A stretch of 5,952 nucleotides of DNA, taken from positions 1 through 5,952 of the forward strand of contig JAGCSE010000028.1 in assembly GCA_017964325.1 (NCBI GenBank), read 5' to 3'. The notes below the pieces were generated by a model, which worked only from the letters and a program-made list of their open reading frames with translations, was not told the origin of the DNA and ran no database searches. The position numbers and the translations under genes are program-made. This document shows, piece after piece, positions 649 to 5,737 of this stretch (positions within the stretch are counted from its first letter, which is position 1; each line of letters opens with the position of its first letter). Source of the DNA: Victivallales bacterium. Lineage in GTDB: Bacteria > Verrucomicrobiota > Lentisphaeria > Oligosphaerales > Oligosphaeraceae.

Positions 649-1056
649 ATGGAAAACAAAATATGGTATGAAAGAAAACAGCCGTTGAAGTTGCGGGTAT
701 GGGATGGCTGTACCTTCACGAATGAATGCAGCTTCATCATGGGGAAGGAAGGGATTGAAGTCATTGGAGCAGATGGGAATCCCAAAAAGGATGTCAAAAT
801 ACAGGTATGGACTGGCTGCTTGGACAGGGAAGGGCATGAGATCTTCGAAGGGGATTATCTGATGTTGACGGATGAAGGCCACTGGATTGGAGCGGTCGTG
901 TTCAATGGTGGATCTTTTTGTTGTCTGGATGAAAACGGTTACTTCAGCAGCGAGTTTGAATGGGGAAATGAACTCGTCGTAGGGAATGTGTTCACTGGAA
1001 TTGACAAAGCTCTAATTGCATTGAAACGCGAAAGATGTAAACAGAAGAATGTATAA
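649..1056 (+). CDS. YopX-family protein (phage-associated)
   Basis: This 135-residue protein has the order of motifs found in the YopX family of small phage and prophage proteins. KLRVWDG at residues 14-20 matches the usual opening (K-x-R-x-W-D). WTGCLDREGHEIFEGDYL at 54-71 matches the hallmark (T-G-L-x-D-x-x-G-x-E-I-x-E-G-D). VVFNGGSF at 83-90 and VVGNVFTG at 110-117 match the later beta strands and the terminal V-x-G-N-x-x pattern. The length is normal for the family. No signal peptide or membrane segment is seen, so it should be cytoplasmic. The biochemical role of YopX proteins is unknown; their presence mainly marks phage, prophage or mobile-element DNA. The start at 649 is preferred to the in-frame TTG at 616 because of the adjacent AAGGA. 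It is followed 62 bases later by another same-strand gene. Confidence 0.85.
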   Translation: MENKIWYERKQPLKLRVWDGCTFTNECSFIMGKEGIEVIGADGNPKKDVKIQVWTGCLDREGHEIFEGDYLMLTDEGHWIGAVVFNGGSFCCLDENGYFSSEFEWGNELVVGNVFTGIDKALIALKRERCKQKNV

Positions 1057-1548: not shown

Positions 1549-2300
1549 AAACACTAAGTTGGAAACCGATTTTATCAAATTTATCAGAAGCCTATGGAGA
1601 ACTAAAAAATCTCTATTGTCACCTGCATTTTATGGCATTTGGTGAAATGCCAGACAACTGGCAAGATGATGGCTCCTATAAGGCATGGCTTGAGAAAAGA
1701 GAAAATGGACATCCTTTCACTGAAATGACTTTGTATGTCAGCCTTGACCATGTGTATCATCATCTTAACTGGGCTTGGAATATCCGACAGACTCTGGAGG
1801 AGCGTATTTGGCACTTCACCCCAGAAGAGGCCAAAAAGTGGGGCAAGTTTCCCAAGACTAGGGATTTCTCTGATCTTTGGTCACCAACAATTTCCACAAA
1901 GATAATCAATGACAAGCCAAGATCCAGAAAAATAAGTCTTACGCCTGTGCGTGTCAGAATACAGGTGGCTCAATGGAAGCTTGGCATTCTCTCTCGTCGC
2001 GTTGAAAAGGAAGTCGAAATTAATTCGTCCATAGGAAACAACTATTCAAAAAGATTGAATGTGGACGTTGATTCACAACTTGACAGGTATTTCTCTCAAT
2101 ATACGTGGGGTTCTTATTCAAAAAGATTGAATGTGGACGTTGATTCACAACCATTCAGTGAAAAGGAATTTGCGAAAAGGATGCATCGGATTTATGCAGA
2201 AATGAACATGGCCTGGAACAGTCGCAAAGACAAGACATTCGTTATAAAACCGTATGCCATTCATCGACGAAGATATTTTCCCAAAATATTTCAAAGATGA
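1545..2300 (+). CDS. Hypothetical protein with two AWN-R motifs and an internal repeat
   Basis: This protein has 251 residues and ends in TGA. Two segments align without gaps: residues 57-81 (PFTE, ten residues, VYHHLNWAWNIR) and 203-227 (PFSE, ten residues, IYAEMNMAWNSR). They share P-F-S/T-E, V/I-Y, L/M-N-x-A-W-N-x-R, and each is followed by K/Y-F-P-K (101-104 and 244-247), so a module of about 45 residues is duplicated. The pattern AWN-x-R followed by a W-x-x-F/P element resembles an uncharacterised bacterial protein group that I cannot name with certainty. Between the copies lies a basic stretch (about 122-155, RSRKISLTPVRVRIQVAQWK) and then YSKRLNVDVDSQ twice (167-178 and 191-202). There is no signal peptide or membrane helix. 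The many Trp, His and Arg residues would suit nucleic-acid or protein binding. ATG 1545 is the only one of three adjacent ATGs that opens a long frame. No function is assigned. Confidence 0.75.
   Translation: MKTLSWKPILSNLSEAYGELKNLYCHLHFMAFGEMPDNWQDDGSYKAWLEKRENGHPFTEMTLYVSLDHVYHHLNWAWNIRQTLEERIWHFTPEEAKKWGKFPKTRDFSDLWSPTISTKIINDKPRSRKISLTPVRVRIQVAQWKLGILSRRVEKEVEINSSIGNNYSKRLNVDVDSQLDRYFSQYTWGSYSKRLNVDVDSQPFSEKEFAKRMHRIYAEMNMAWNSRKDKTFVIKPYAIHRRRYFPKIFQR
2043..2151 (+). repeat. Perfect 37-bp direct repeat, 72-bp period, in frame
   Basis: The 37 bases at 2043-2079 are identical to those at 2115-2151, with 35 unrelated bases between. The period is 72 bp (24 codons), so both copies encode YSKRLNVDVDSQ. 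Each copy contains two small inverted repeats with five-base loops: ATTCAA/TTGAAT (2044-2049 with 2055-2060) and GTTG/CAAC (2067-2070 with 2076-2079). Identity at every synonymous site means recent copying at the DNA level. No third copy flanks the pair. Confidence 0.9.
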
Positions 2301-2512
2301 CTAAATGTTTACTTTTAGAGATGGTAGAAAAAGAATATCAGCTAAAGTCATTATTTCATTATCTTCAAATAATTGAATTTTGTCTTTAAATAATATTGTG
2401 CAGATGAAGCCTTCAATTTTTTTGCCCACCAGTGGCACATTCTTGACCAGTTAAAATGTCATCTAACGGCTTTTCATGCGGATTTTGTTTTGGCATAAAG
2501 ATTGCTATGGAT

Positions 2513-2558: not shown

Positions 2559-4100
2559 ATGAACGAGAACATTGAGACAATGATGGAACAAGACGACTGG
2601 GATGCCATACAAGACTATCTATATACGCATCATCAGGAAATGAATCTACGAAGTGGTAACATCCTTCAACGAGCTGCCGAACGCGCTCCTGACATCCGAC
2701 GCTTCATCCAATATTTTCCTATTGAAATGACCGACGAGAATGGTCGAACCGCAACTTGGTGGGCAGCCTTCCGCGGGCAGCTCGGCAATTTGCGCGCCTT
2801 GCTTGAAGCGGGAGCCAATCCAAATCTTGCAGATCACAAGGGGCTTTCCCCACTGTTTGTTGCAGCCAATGGAATGACTGTCGCGTTACTTCACGAGTTT
2901 GGTGCACAATTGCAGGCATTTGACAACAATGGGACGCCTCTGCTGGAATATGTGGAAAAGAGCGGACGGCTTGATGCGGTAAATCGCATACGTGAACTTT
3001 CCCCAGGCGTTTCCGAATATGCGTTCACGATTTCACAGAACAATGATGACTATGGGACACGATTCGAAATGCTGAACATATCACCAAGAATATTGGTGGA
3101 TAGTCTTGATGCTGACAATGGTTCGTTGCGAGGCATCATTGTTGATGGAGAACGATATACCCTGTCCCATCGATTTCTCAAAGGTCTGGCCACCCGCATG
3201 AAAGTCCCATACACTGTATTCAACCTGTTCACGCCGTTGGAAGTGATTCACCGTACAGCGGAAAGACAGCCCGATCTTCCCCTTCGGATGACTCTTGACC
3301 ACTTGAATAGGACTGCACTTGGGCTTGTTGAGGCCAAAGGAAATGCGCTTCCCATCGGCCAAGTGGCAAATATTCTAAAGCATGATTCCCGCATCCAGAA
3401 AATTGACTATGAAAACGGTATCTTGAAGGCAACTCTCGATTTAAACGAAACATGGGTTATTCCTCACGACAGTGAATACAAAGTACAGGTGTCCTGCCAG
3501 ATTCCTGTTGACGGAATGGGCCAGCCGGAAATCATTCTTGCGACTTACCGTCAGATTTGCAGCAATGGGGCCGTCGCAGAGGAATCCAGCTTCCGTACTA
3601 AGATGGAAATCAAAGACAACAGCGGACTGCATTTTTCCAAGTTGCTCAGATCGTTTAACAACCGCAATGGAATAGAGATGCTGCACCAACGGTTGTTGGA
3701 TGCCAATACGACAAAGGCTTCGGTAGGTGAATTGATGGAGGTGGATGGACTGATTCGGAAGATGGTTACAGACAGACACAGTCAAATGCTTTTGTGCGAA
3801 GAACTTCTGACACTTGGTGACAATCCCTGTGTACATTATGGTGTCACCGATCTTTCAAATATCGGTGAAAAGCGGCGTAGCTTGTTGCCCGTCGGTTGCT
3901 CGGTGGCCGATTTGTTGAACTTTACCTCCGAGCTTGGTACGCATTACTGTAAACTGCTGAAAGAGGTGGAGCCTCTACACGCCTTCTACGGTCGAAAGTT
4001 GGCCAGAAGTTTTGATTTGGAGGACATGTACAAGAACACTCGCCCCGCAAGGGACTTCCATTTGAATCGTATTTATTTTGGAGAGGCTGCAAATCAATGA
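2559..4100 (+). CDS. Ankyrin-repeat plus DUF932-like (phage/plasmid-like) protein
   Basis: This 513-residue protein has two parts. Residues 59-92 are a clear ankyrin repeat (NGRTATWWAAFRGQLGNLRA, then LLEAGANPNLAD). Residues 93-121 and 122-144 are weaker repeats (KGLSPLFVAANG; NGTPLLEYV), and residues 1-58 may be a degenerate capping repeat. From about 150 to the end the sequence resembles the DUF932 / phage-plasmid-like family: YTLSHRFLKGLATRMKVP (200-217), where an early helix selects 'correct' fold elements in that family, and RQICSNGA (331-338), matching its typical R-x-x-C-x-N-G. DUF932 proteins are common on phages and plasmids and have no established activity. Ankyrin repeats bind proteins, so this half may recruit a partner. 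The stop overlaps the helicase-protease start as ATGA, pointing to coupled synthesis and joint function. There is no signal peptide or membrane segment. The DUF932 assignment rests on pattern recognition only. Confidence 0.8.
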   Translation: MNENIETMMEQDDWDAIQDYLYTHHQEMNLRSGNILQRAAERAPDIRRFIQYFPIEMTDENGRTATWWAAFRGQLGNLRALLEAGANPNLADHKGLSPLFVAANGMTVALLHEFGAQLQAFDNNGTPLLEYVEKSGRLDAVNRIRELSPGVSEYAFTISQNNDDYGTRFEMLNISPRILVDSLDADNGSLRGIIVDGERYTLSHRFLKGLATRMKVPYTVFNLFTPLEVIHRTAERQPDLPLRMTLDHLNRTALGLVEAKGNALPIGQVANILKHDSRIQKIDYENGILKATLDLNETWVIPHDSEYKVQVSCQIPVDGMGQPEIILATYRQICSNGAVAEESSFRTKMEIKDNSGLHFSKLLRSFNNRNGIEMLHQRLLDANTTKASVGELMEVDGLIRKMVTDRHSQMLLCEELLTLGDNPCVHYGVTDLSNIGEKRRSLLPVGCSVADLLNFTSELGTHYCKLLKEVEPLHAFYGRKLARSFDLEDMYKNTRPARDFHLNRIYFGEAANQ

Positions 4101-5737
4101 AGTACGAATACCGCCAGTATCAGGAGGATGCCGTTGCCACCTGCCTAAAATGCTATGAGCAAGGGAGGAATTCCGTCATGCTCGAATCACCAGTCGGTTC
4201 AGGCAAGACACTGATGGCGTTGAAGATCCTTCATTGCATGCAGGAGCGAATGGGGCGTCGTCTTCGCATCAATTGGATTGCTCCGCGTCGTCATCTGCTC
4301 CAGCAGGTGATGGAGGCGAATCTAGGGTTGTTCCAAGATGACATTCGTCCAGTTTCTCTATTTGAAAAGGTGCCGCCGCCTGCAGAGTTTGTCGTGCTTG
4401 ATGAAGCGCACCATGAGGCAACTCAGTCATGCGTGCTTCTCTATGAAAAGATGCATAACACATGGACTCTCGGCCTTTCAGCGACTCCTCTGCGGACAGA
4501 TCGCATGAAACTTTCGTTTCAGGAAACTGTCACGACTTGTGGTATCGGACGTCTCATCCGCGAGGGCTTTCTCAGTCCATTCCATTCTTATCTGCTGCCC
4601 CACTATGATGTGAAAATCGTGGCGGAATGCTATCTGCAATCCCCTGAAAAATGGGGCAAGAGTCTCGTGTTCTTCCACACAATCTGCGAATGCATGGAGT
4701 TTCAGGCAATTCTCGAGGCAAATGGAATCCCCTGTGAAGTAGTCACTTCCGACAGTGACAAAGATGCTCAACTGGAGAGATTTTGTTATAATCGTACTCG
4801 AGTCATCGCCAATGTCTCGATGCTGACGGAGGGCTTTGATCAGCCAGATGTTCAAAGCATCTTCGCACGGGATGCATCGCGTCTTCCGACCATCCAGATG
4901 TGCGGGCGTGGATTGCGCCGTTGTGAGGACAAGGAAAAATGTAACATCATCCAAAGCTGCAATACCTCCTATCTGTTTGAAAAGGTCGCCCCTGCGCAGA
5001 ACGCCTTCCGACTGATGAACGGACAATGGCTTGCCTTGAAAGACGGCACGGAGGAAATCAATGCAACGATTGCGCAAAGTCTGAAACTTCTAGAACAACG
5101 AGATGCCATTATAAAGAATAAACGAAATGTATCGTCTCATTTGCAAAATGATTATGACAATAGGGAATTTAGACATAAAAATAGTATAGAAGAGGTCAAA
5201 TCATTACCTGTATCTCAATCATTGTATTATCAGGCATTCGGTGAAATCTATAAAGAACTCTATGGTCTCTATGATTTTTGCAACAGTGTCTGTTGGAACA
5301 ACCATTTGCCTAAATGTGTAATTTTCATGAATCGAAAAGTTGTACCTTTTCATGTAATGGCATTTGCCACGGCTTCAAAAGCAGAGAAAAATGGTATCAT
5401 ATATCCTGGCATTTGCTTAATCTTGCGACAATGTAGTCGCATCACACCTGAACATCTATTGCGTGTGATGCTTCATGAAATGACACATATCTGGCAATTT
5501 ACCAATGGCTTACGTGGCGGACATGGCAGGGATTTCTACAGTACCATGGTCTGCATCGGTATACGGGAAAAAGAAGACCTCTGTCGAAATGGATCTCTTG
5601 CAGACTATATCCTCAAGGACGCACAACAAAACCATCCCGACATATGTCTTCATCTCCGTGAAATGCTGGAATCTGACATCCCCTATCCCCCAGAAGGGGA
5701 TGTCAGATTCTTCTTTGAAGAAGTGGTTGGAGAATGA
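4097..5737 (+). CDS. SF2 DEAH-box helicase fused to SprT-like zinc metalloprotease
   Basis: This 546-residue protein has two enzymes in one chain. The N-terminal helicase shows Q-like YRQYQEDAV (5-13), Walker A SPVGSGKT (31-38), motif Ia around IAPRRHLLQQ (61-70), DEAH (102-105), SAT (128-130), KSLVFFHT (188-195), LTEGFDQPDV (243-252) and motif VI QMCGRGLRR (267-275). It is thus a complete SF2 ATPase of the UvsW/RadD-like type acting on nucleic acid. After an AT-rich linker (about 333-372), residues 377-500 are SprT-like, with zinc site HEMTH (460-464) and third ligand H476 in GGHGRDF. The catalytic Glu461 is present. SprT/Spartan proteases cut proteins bound or crosslinked to DNA, so a motor-protease for clearing DNA is a reasonable inference. 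No zinc-ribbon tail follows the protease domain. ATGA overlap couples it to the upstream gene. Base composition drops sharply at the linker, suggesting a fusion. Confidence 0.9.
   Translation: MKYEYRQYQEDAVATCLKCYEQGRNSVMLESPVGSGKTLMALKILHCMQERMGRRLRINWIAPRRHLLQQVMEANLGLFQDDIRPVSLFEKVPPPAEFVVLDEAHHEATQSCVLLYEKMHNTWTLGLSATPLRTDRMKLSFQETVTTCGIGRLIREGFLSPFHSYLLPHYDVKIVAECYLQSPEKWGKSLVFFHTICECMEFQAILEANGIPCEVVTSDSDKDAQLERFCYNRTRVIANVSMLTEGFDQPDVQSIFARDASRLPTIQMCGRGLRRCEDKEKCNIIQSCNTSYLFEKVAPAQNAFRLMNGQWLALKDGTEEINATIAQSLKLLEQRDAIIKNKRNVSSHLQNDYDNREFRHKNSIEEVKSLPVSQSLYYQAFGEIYKELYGLYDFCNSVCWNNHLPKCVIFMNRKVVPFHVMAFATASKAEKNGIIYPGICLILRQCSRITPEHLLRVMLHEMTHIWQFTNGLRGGHGRDFYSTMVCIGIREKEDLCRNGSLADYILKDAQQNHPDICLHLREMLESDIPYPPEGDVRFFFEEVVGE
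5669..5717 (+). terminator. Perfect 16-bp inverted repeat inside the 3' end of the helicase-protease gene
   Basis: The 16 bases at 5669-5684 are the exact reverse complement of 5695-5710, with a ten-base loop, and the outer G5668/T5711 could add a wobble pair. Half of the stem is G/C. TTCTTTG follows the right arm, a poor but recognisable U-rich tail. The stem encodes residues 525-538 and ends 27 bases before the TGA. It could end transcription when translation stalls, protect the mRNA 3' end, or be an old terminator absorbed by loss of an earlier stop. The structure is certain; terminator activity is not. Confidence 0.5.

What the first reader, a model, noticed from the sequence alone, without database searches (positions are those of the whole stretch)
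4097..5737. Helicase fused to a SprT-like protease in one polypeptide
A full set of SF2 motifs (Walker A, DEAH, SAT, motif VI) and a full SprT zinc site (HEMTH plus H in GGHGRDF) share one frame. SprT/Spartan proteases act on proteins attached to DNA, and joining one to a translocating ATPase is a direct design for a machine that moves along DNA and removes bound protein. I do not recall a characterised bacterial example of this architecture on an accessory element.
Basis: partly seen in the sequence, partly recalled or inferred. Interest (0 to 1): 0.72.

Follow-up and report, generated by a model that had tools for sequence, protein, structure and literature searches.

The report
Helicase fused to a Spartan-like protease
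A bacterial DNA stretch encodes one protein that joins a nucleic-acid motor to a protease of the kind that clears proteins stuck to DNA; relatives show the protease half joined, exchanged, disabled or lost while the motor and its partner gene stay.

Summary
ORF 4097-5737 (546 aa) is one uninterrupted frame with an SF2 helicase core (about residues 1-337) and a SprT/Spartan-type zinc-protease domain (about 378-540; H460, E461, H464, H476). The fusion recurs in many relatives, so it is not an assembly error. The conserved unit is a gene pair: a DUF932-like protein, immediately upstream, and the helicase. They are adjacent in 41 of 42 bacterial places examined and in 9 of 9 viral contigs, there in reversed order and without SprT in the stretch held. 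SprT is an addition: a separate gene of the same operon in four genomes, fused to the helicase in the window's group. In relatives it lost the catalytic glutamate at least twice, lost zinc ligands in one large clade, was apparently exchanged between near-identical helicases, or disappeared. A sigma54-type promoter element and a tandem AAA+ ATPase are statistically linked to the pair. Best reading: an inducible, mobile nucleic-acid motor module with an optional Spartan-type module that cleaves, or in many relatives only contacts, nucleic-acid-bound protein. Biochemistry is untested. My ten paper searches found no description of it.

The parts
4097..5737 (+). Helicase-SprT fusion gene (546 aa)
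4097..5107 (+). SF2 helicase core, about residues 1-337; closest solved folds LlaBIII, RadD, XPB, HsdR
4196..4210 (+). Walker A GSGKT (residues 34-38)
4400..4411 (+). DEAH box (102-105)
4478..4486 (+). SAT motif (128-130)
4895..4918 (+). Motif VI QMCGRGLR (267-274)
5132..5197 (+). Low-confidence linker (346-367)
   Evidence: pLDDT under 50
5228..5734 (+). SprT-like (Spartan-type) domain, residues 378-546
5474..5488 (+). HEMTH zinc/catalytic motif (460-464)
5522..5524 (+). Third zinc ligand H476
2559..4100 (+). Partner gene, 513 aa: ankyrin repeats (about 2559-3010) plus a DUF932-like domain (about 3009-4097)
4097..4100 (+). ATGA overlap: partner stop and helicase start share bases
2491..2505 (+). 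Candidate sigma54 -24/-12 element TGGCATAAAGATTGC (1 mismatch of 10), 53 bases before the partner ATG

Best explanation
This is the second gene of a two-gene unit: a DUF932-like protein (here with N-terminal ankyrin repeats) and an SF2 nucleic-acid motor of the RadD/XPB/HsdR kind. SHOWN by sequence: the pair is the conserved core and also occurs in viral contigs, there without SprT in the stretch held. A Spartan-type zinc protease is associated with the pair in Lentisphaeria/Kiritimatiellae-type genomes, as a separate gene of the same operon in some and fused to the helicase C-terminus in others, and it has decayed or been lost in several branches. INFERRED: the DUF932-like protein and the motor act together on nucleic acid. 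In the window, whose zinc site is complete, the motor brings the protease to proteins bound or crosslinked to nucleic acid and the protease clips them. In relatives with a dead domain, the same domain only contacts such protein or a partner. The operon is inducible through sigma54 activators and moves as an island.
Against: No activity was measured. Helicase-only relatives (9 of the 120 listed proteins; 12 of 42 places) show that the protease is dispensable. Nothing shows that the nucleic acid is DNA rather than RNA. Domain arrangement is not predicted reliably (pTM 0.54). Three distant pairs of intact SprT domains gave dN/dS 0.61-1.01, so this half evolves fast and the constraint argument is not strong. 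The window carries no mobility gene apart from a YopX-like one, and no regulator or AAA+ gene lies within it.
Confidence: 0.42

Rival explanations
1. One reading: a dedicated ATP-driven DNA-protein-crosslink protease that translocates and removes bound protein.
For: Complete motor and zinc sites in the window; Spartan is the best solved relative; E112Q inactivates Spartan (PMC5128726 passages), so the catalytic residue kept here fits activity.
Against: 24 of 81 aligned relatives lack an intact site; the SprT half is lost repeatedly and was not found beside the viral pairs.
Confidence: 0.2
2. The SprT half is mainly a recognition or docking module for the motor, kept for binding and varied by exchange; proteolysis is secondary or lost.
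For: Degraded domains keep dN/dS below 1; in G195/G004/G188 helicases are 98.4-99.7% identical but the SprT halves only 67-79%, with high identity returning downstream in G195 against G188; P0052 pairs a P0049/P0055-type helicase with a P0041-type SprT half.
Against: 57 of 81 keep the full site, including the window; only two exchange groups were found, and P0052 could be an assembly chimera (one member, 2033-base contig).
Confidence: 0.2
3. The protease regulates the module itself: it clips the partner, the motor or a repressor upon damage, like zincin domains that process multidomain phage or plasmid proteins.
For: Processing by zincin-like metallopeptidases is proposed for polyvalent proteins (PMC5512222 abstract and passages); sigma54 activators lie near many loci, though they are common in these genomes.
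Against: No cleavage site was sought; many inactive or missing domains coexist with an intact pair.
Confidence: 0.1
4. A phage-type DNA replication/recombination gene pair kept on chromosomal islands, with SprT an opportunistic rider of little importance.
For: The pair occurs in viral contigs; DNA ligase-like genes precede it in L092, L094, L095; a fused beta-beta' RNA polymerase and a sigma factor flank it in others.
Against: SprT, intact or not, accompanies the pair in 27 of 42 places.
Confidence: 0.08

Closest known systems
Spartan/SPRTN and Wss1 (SprT-type DNA-protein-crosslink proteases)
   Same: HExxH plus third His in register with human Spartan by profile; E112Q kills Spartan (PMC5128726 passages), matching the predicted inactivity of HAxxH relatives.
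   Different: Here fused to an SF2 motor or encoded beside it in a bacterial operon. That Spartan and Wss1 work with the tandem AAA+ p97/Cdc48 is recalled; a tandem AAA+ gene is linked here, but it is not shown to be equivalent.
RadD/YejH, HsdR, LlaBIII, XPB (SF2 motors)
   Same: Among the best structural matches of the helicase half.
   Different: Far below the RadD family cut-off (53.9 against 720 bits); different C-terminal half and a DUF932-like partner.
DUF932 proteins (prophage and plasmid type, recalled)
   Same: Partner aligns over 221 columns, hhalign probability 96.8%; controls 0.1%.
   Different: Below the Pfam cut-off in the members scanned; constant association with this helicase.
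Polyvalent proteins of phages and conjugative elements (Iyer 2017, PMC5512222)
   Same: Zincin-like metallopeptidases and SF2 helicases occur in one set of proteins.
   Different: Passages read describe large multidomain proteins with SWI2/SNF2 helicases; 'SprT' has no occurrence in the main text.
Stand-alone SprT of jumbo phages and mycobacteriophages
   Same: Same protease family (PMC7824862 and PMC12363180 passages).
   Different: No helicase fusion is mentioned in the passages read.

Membership tests
SprT/Spartan-type metalloprotease | HExxH and a third His ligand | tested here: met
   H460, E461, H464, H476; in register with Spartan
SprT/Spartan-type metalloprotease | Score above the curated Pfam SprT-like cut-off | tested here: not met
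   21.6 against 25.6 bits for the window protein; the separate orthologue in L086 passes with 39.5
SprT/Spartan-type metalloprotease | Three His in one metal site | tested here: inconclusive
   No coordinates; joint loss of H460 and H476 in 17 of 17 rows; helix-loop layout fits
SprT/Spartan-type metalloprotease | DNA-dependent protease activity | not testable with these tools
   needs biochemistry
SF2 helicase/translocase | Walker A, DEAH, SAT, motif VI | tested here: met
RadD (NCBIfam equivalog) | Score above 720 bits | tested here: not met
   53.9 bits
DUF932 (partner) | Pfam PF06067 gathering score | tested here: not met
   best single-sequence match E 0.0017, 18.6 against 23 bits, in a viral member; 4 of 55 bacterial members weak, best E 0.037
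DUF932 (partner) | Homology by profile-profile comparison | tested here: met
   probability 96.8%, E 2.7e-10, 221 columns; 84.3% with a narrower alignment; controls 0.1%
Known anti-phage defence systems (PADLOC) | Match to a system's signature proteins | tested here: inconclusive
   helicase-SprT protein matches PbeA 4.5e-17 and restriction subunits, mainly over the motor; partner matches two models (Ankyrin, PDC-M72A) over its N-terminal ankyrin part
Polyvalent proteins | Large multidomain protein with LPD-type domains | not tested
   definition taken from passages and recall; LPD domains not sought

The most novel reading that the evidence does not exclude
An inducible, horizontally moving conflict or repair system in which a Spartan-type protease was captured by a phage-type DUF932-helicase pair, fused, and then turned in several branches into an exchangeable non-catalytic recognition domain on the motor.
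Probability: 0.27. Interest if true: 0.78.

Novelty: new variant of a known kind. Interest (0 to 1): 0.62.

Why it matters
It would be a bacterial case in which a Spartan-type protease is physically coupled to a nucleic-acid motor, with natural separate, fused, catalytically dead (Glu to Ala) and protease-free versions for direct comparison. That makes testable whether translocation and proteolysis are coupled, and whether a dead SprT fold still has a job. It also gives a functional lead for DUF932 proteins, which as far as I know (recall) have no established function.

Tried and rejected
Frameshift or assembly artefact in the window: rejected. The same fused frame occurs in P0002 (91% identity in A1, 47 member sequences), P0003 (54 members) and many others. 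Some relatives do have breaks: L050 an in-frame TAA between the halves, L008 frame breaks. I described these, mended none, and kept L008 out of the tree.

Phage or plasmid origin of the window: not shown. No megablast match of the window in the phage or plasmid collections; no match for the partner domain there. Whole-genome context: none held.

The PDB look-up of the full partner model was filled by ankyrin hits, so its DUF932-like fold was not tested by structure. The SprT half was not listed in the VIA table, which the helicase filled: inconclusive.

DUF932: not found above cut-off in five pair genomes; it became convincing only with a more diverse partner alignment (84.3%, 96.8%).

The SprT tree does not resolve whether the separate genes are ancestral to the fused ones (fused rows are one group in 16% of bootstrap trees). 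The order separate-then-fused rests on the helicase tree, which warns of long branches and whose root I set.

Sigma54 scan: partner ORFs that the crude caller missed (for example in L053, L089, L035, L070) were left out of the 6-of-30 count. One search, with wider windows, shows elements of 0-1 mismatch for window, L006, L008, L050, L053, L054, L062, L035, L044 and L089, that is 10 of 40 loci scanned.

Association of sigma54 activators with the pair was not tested against background; they are common (a match in 38 of 39 pair genomes).

Slips in scripts: one search prints HTxxH for L054, which one search shows to be HEMTH; L063's SprT is cut by the contig end; L038 duplicates L065 (same place), so the 43 rows are 42 places. 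At least two further helicase matches (G179:C249 and a fragment in G249:C22) were not examined for neighbours. The 81 rows of A1 were chosen from 121: helicase-only, truncated and some near-identical rows were dropped, and the profiles built from A1 inherit that choice. PADLOC was run on the two window proteins only.
Full report

2. THE FUSION IS A FAMILY. A search of 5.8 billion proteins gives 428 homologues at E up to 1e-3, of which 120 were listed. One, P0024, is named 'SprT-like domain-containing protein' of a Kiritimatiellae bacterium. With the window, 119 of 121 have Walker A (the two without are shorter records that begin shortly before the DEAH box), and 121 of 121 have DEAH and motif VI. 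In 81 full-length rows chosen from these 121, the residues at H460/E461/H464/H476 are HEHH in 57, HAHH in 6, HVHH in 1, and otherwise in 17. In those 17 both H460 and H476 are gone (2 keep H464, 6 show a Glu at 461). H476 is kept in 64 of 64 rows that kept H460. This fits one metal site, with the caveat that rows are related. E112Q inactivates Spartan (PMC5128726, passages), so the 7 HAxxH/HVxxH forms are predicted inactive. Nine of the 120 listed proteins are helicase-only.

3. THE CONSERVED UNIT IS A GENE PAIR. In the window the helicase start overlaps the stop of a 513-aa gene with N-terminal ankyrin repeats. Among 42 distinct places examined with this helicase (43 rows, one duplicate), the partner lies directly upstream in 41; the exception, L096, is a helicase fragment. 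The partner is DUF932-like. Single-sequence Pfam matches are weak (4 of 55 members, best E 0.037; two viral members 0.0017 and 0.0019). Profile-profile comparison with 13 DUF932 proteins gives 84.3% with a narrow alignment and 96.8%, E 2.7e-10, 221 columns with a diverse one. Two unrelated comparisons give 0.1%. All 9 have a helicase of this family just upstream (E 3.1e-41 to 4.2e-98), that is in the reversed gene order, and no SprT hit in the stretch held. Some are copies of one another, leaving about six distinct sequences. Of 8 viral contigs found with the helicase instead, 2 have a partner hit within about 3 kb and 6 have none in the stretch held. Adjacency conserved with changed order argues for a working partnership.

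4. WHERE SprT CAME FROM AND WHAT BECAME OF IT. In G002, G433, G508 and G436 (L099, L085, L086, L087) SprT is a separate gene immediately upstream of the partner: SprT, partner, helicase. Of the 42 places (states read): 5 fused with intact site (window, L006, L051, L054, L070); 1 with intact motif but frame breaks (L008); 1 with an in-frame TAA between the halves (L050); 1 HAxxH (L084); 15 fused and degraded, one of them cut by the contig end; 4 separate; 12 with no SprT found; 3 not assessable (L044, L090, L096). On a helicase tree of 73 rows I set the helicase-only places L091-L095 as root. The seven rows that hold the separate-SprT places branch next, and the other 61 rows (the fused type and helicase-only kin) form one group (support 89). 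The label 'none' needs 12 changes on the tree, 7 forced by starred branches; HAxxH needs 3, all forced (with a long-branch warning). An earlier 120-row tree agrees that helicase-only forms are scattered. A SprT tree puts fused and separate copies together (100/100) against six stand-alone SprTs of Alteromonas-type bacteria and a virus, without resolving which is older. Reading: recruitment as an operon gene, fusion to the helicase, then in several branches loss of the catalytic Glu, of the metal ligands, or of the domain.

5. THE DEAD DOMAIN IS FAIRLY CONSTRAINED AND APPARENTLY EXCHANGED. By a simple Nei-Gojobori count, pairs of degraded members with SprT dS under 0.7 give dN/dS from 0 to 0.41 for the SprT half against 0.03-0.18 for the helicase; more distant pairs reach 0.69. 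Three distant pairs with intact sites gave 0.61-1.01, so this half evolves fast in general and the argument is limited. In G195, G004 and G188 the helicases are 98.4-99.7% identical but the SprT halves only 67-79%. Nucleotide identity falls from 95-100% to 68-85% near the helicase-SprT boundary and, in G195 against G188, returns to 94-96% beyond. P0052, with an intact site, has a helicase 99.4-99.7% identical to P0049/P0055 and a SprT half 99% identical to P0041; it rests on one 2033-base contig, so an assembly chimera is possible. Such discordant pairs are 7 of the 43 with helicase identity of 98% or more (5 without the duplicate row L038), in two groups.

6. REGULATION, NEIGHBOURS, MOBILITY. 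A sigma54-type -24/-12 element with at most one mismatch lies near the start of 6 of 30 partner ORFs against 9 of 339 other ORFs (one-sided Fisher 5e-4). The window has one at 2491-2505. Sigma54 activators of RtcR or another type lie near many places, but matches occur in 38 of 39 pair genomes and this association was not tested against background. A tandem AAA+ ATPase (PF00004 twice) lies within 10 kb in 13 of 39 pair genomes (positions). It co-occurs with the pair in 12 of 14 against 48 of 183 genomes of one class and in 23 of 25 against 41 of 320 of the other; Fisher 1.5e-5 and 8e-17, ignoring relatedness. G195 and G188 share a roughly 6-kb block (sigma factor, partner, helicase, RtcR-like) with little similarity beyond it. 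L006 has GmrSD-type, PLD-type, HipA-like and PIF1-like genes nearby (the last two named by eye).

7. MECHANISM. Shown: architecture, operon, homology, decay. Strongly suggested: exchange. Following from the families: an ATP-driven SF2 motor and, in the window, a zinc protease with all catalytic residues. Inferred: motor and DUF932-like protein act together on nucleic acid; SprT acts on protein bound there; induction through sigma54. A tandem AAA+ beside a Spartan-type protease recalls the p97/Cdc48-Spartan partnership of eukaryotes (recall, not tested). DNA repair, defence and a domesticated phage replication module are not separated by this evidence.

8. NOVELTY. Ten paper searches showed no description of a helicase-SprT fusion or of this pair in their listings; four papers were opened, by passages only. 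The library holds open-licence papers only. Closest is the polyvalent-protein theme (PMC5512222). I rate it a new variant of a known kind, interest 0.62.

Noticed in passing
L055:12488-17416 (-); also L056, L057, L059, L060, L061, L063: A 1642-aa single-chain RNA polymerase joining Rpb2-type (beta) and Rpb1-type (beta') domains lies in one run with the partner-helicase pair; L055, L056 and L061 also have a sigma70-type factor there and six of the seven an RtcR-like activator.
   Followed up: partly
L094:1977-9696 (+); also L092, L095: Tightly packed same-strand run: tandem AAA+ (not found in L092), genes of 219 and 229 aa without Pfam match, ATP-dependent DNA ligase-like gene, DUF932-like partner, helicase.
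   Followed up: partly
L065/L101 (G195) against L100 (G188), about 0.8-1.4 kb of the G195 contig: The N-terminal part of the sigma70-type factor is also divergent (66-77%) beside an otherwise 94-100% identical stretch: a second variable segment.
   Followed up: no
window 2043-2079 and 2115-2151: Perfect 37-base direct repeat, spacing 72, inside the 251-aa ORF 1545-2300; it repeats a peptide stretch.
   Followed up: no
window 649-1056 (+): YopX-like phage-type protein (phrog_98, 1.6e-9; Pfam YopX just under its cut-off), the only hint of a mobile element that I saw in the window itself.
   Followed up: no
L006:4643-5176, L050:14741, L090:6399-6917, L096:7121-7642: A small PLD-type protein recurs near the pair in four loci.
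   Followed up: no
L086:5492-6181; also L085, L087, L088: A conserved gene of about 224-230 aa without Pfam match directly follows the helicase in L086, L087 and L088, and a homologous stretch does in L085.
   Followed up: no
L050:9558-9560; L008 near 7331 and 8263: In-frame TAA between helicase and SprT in one genome and frame breaks in another; real splits or assembly errors cannot be told apart.
   Followed up: partly
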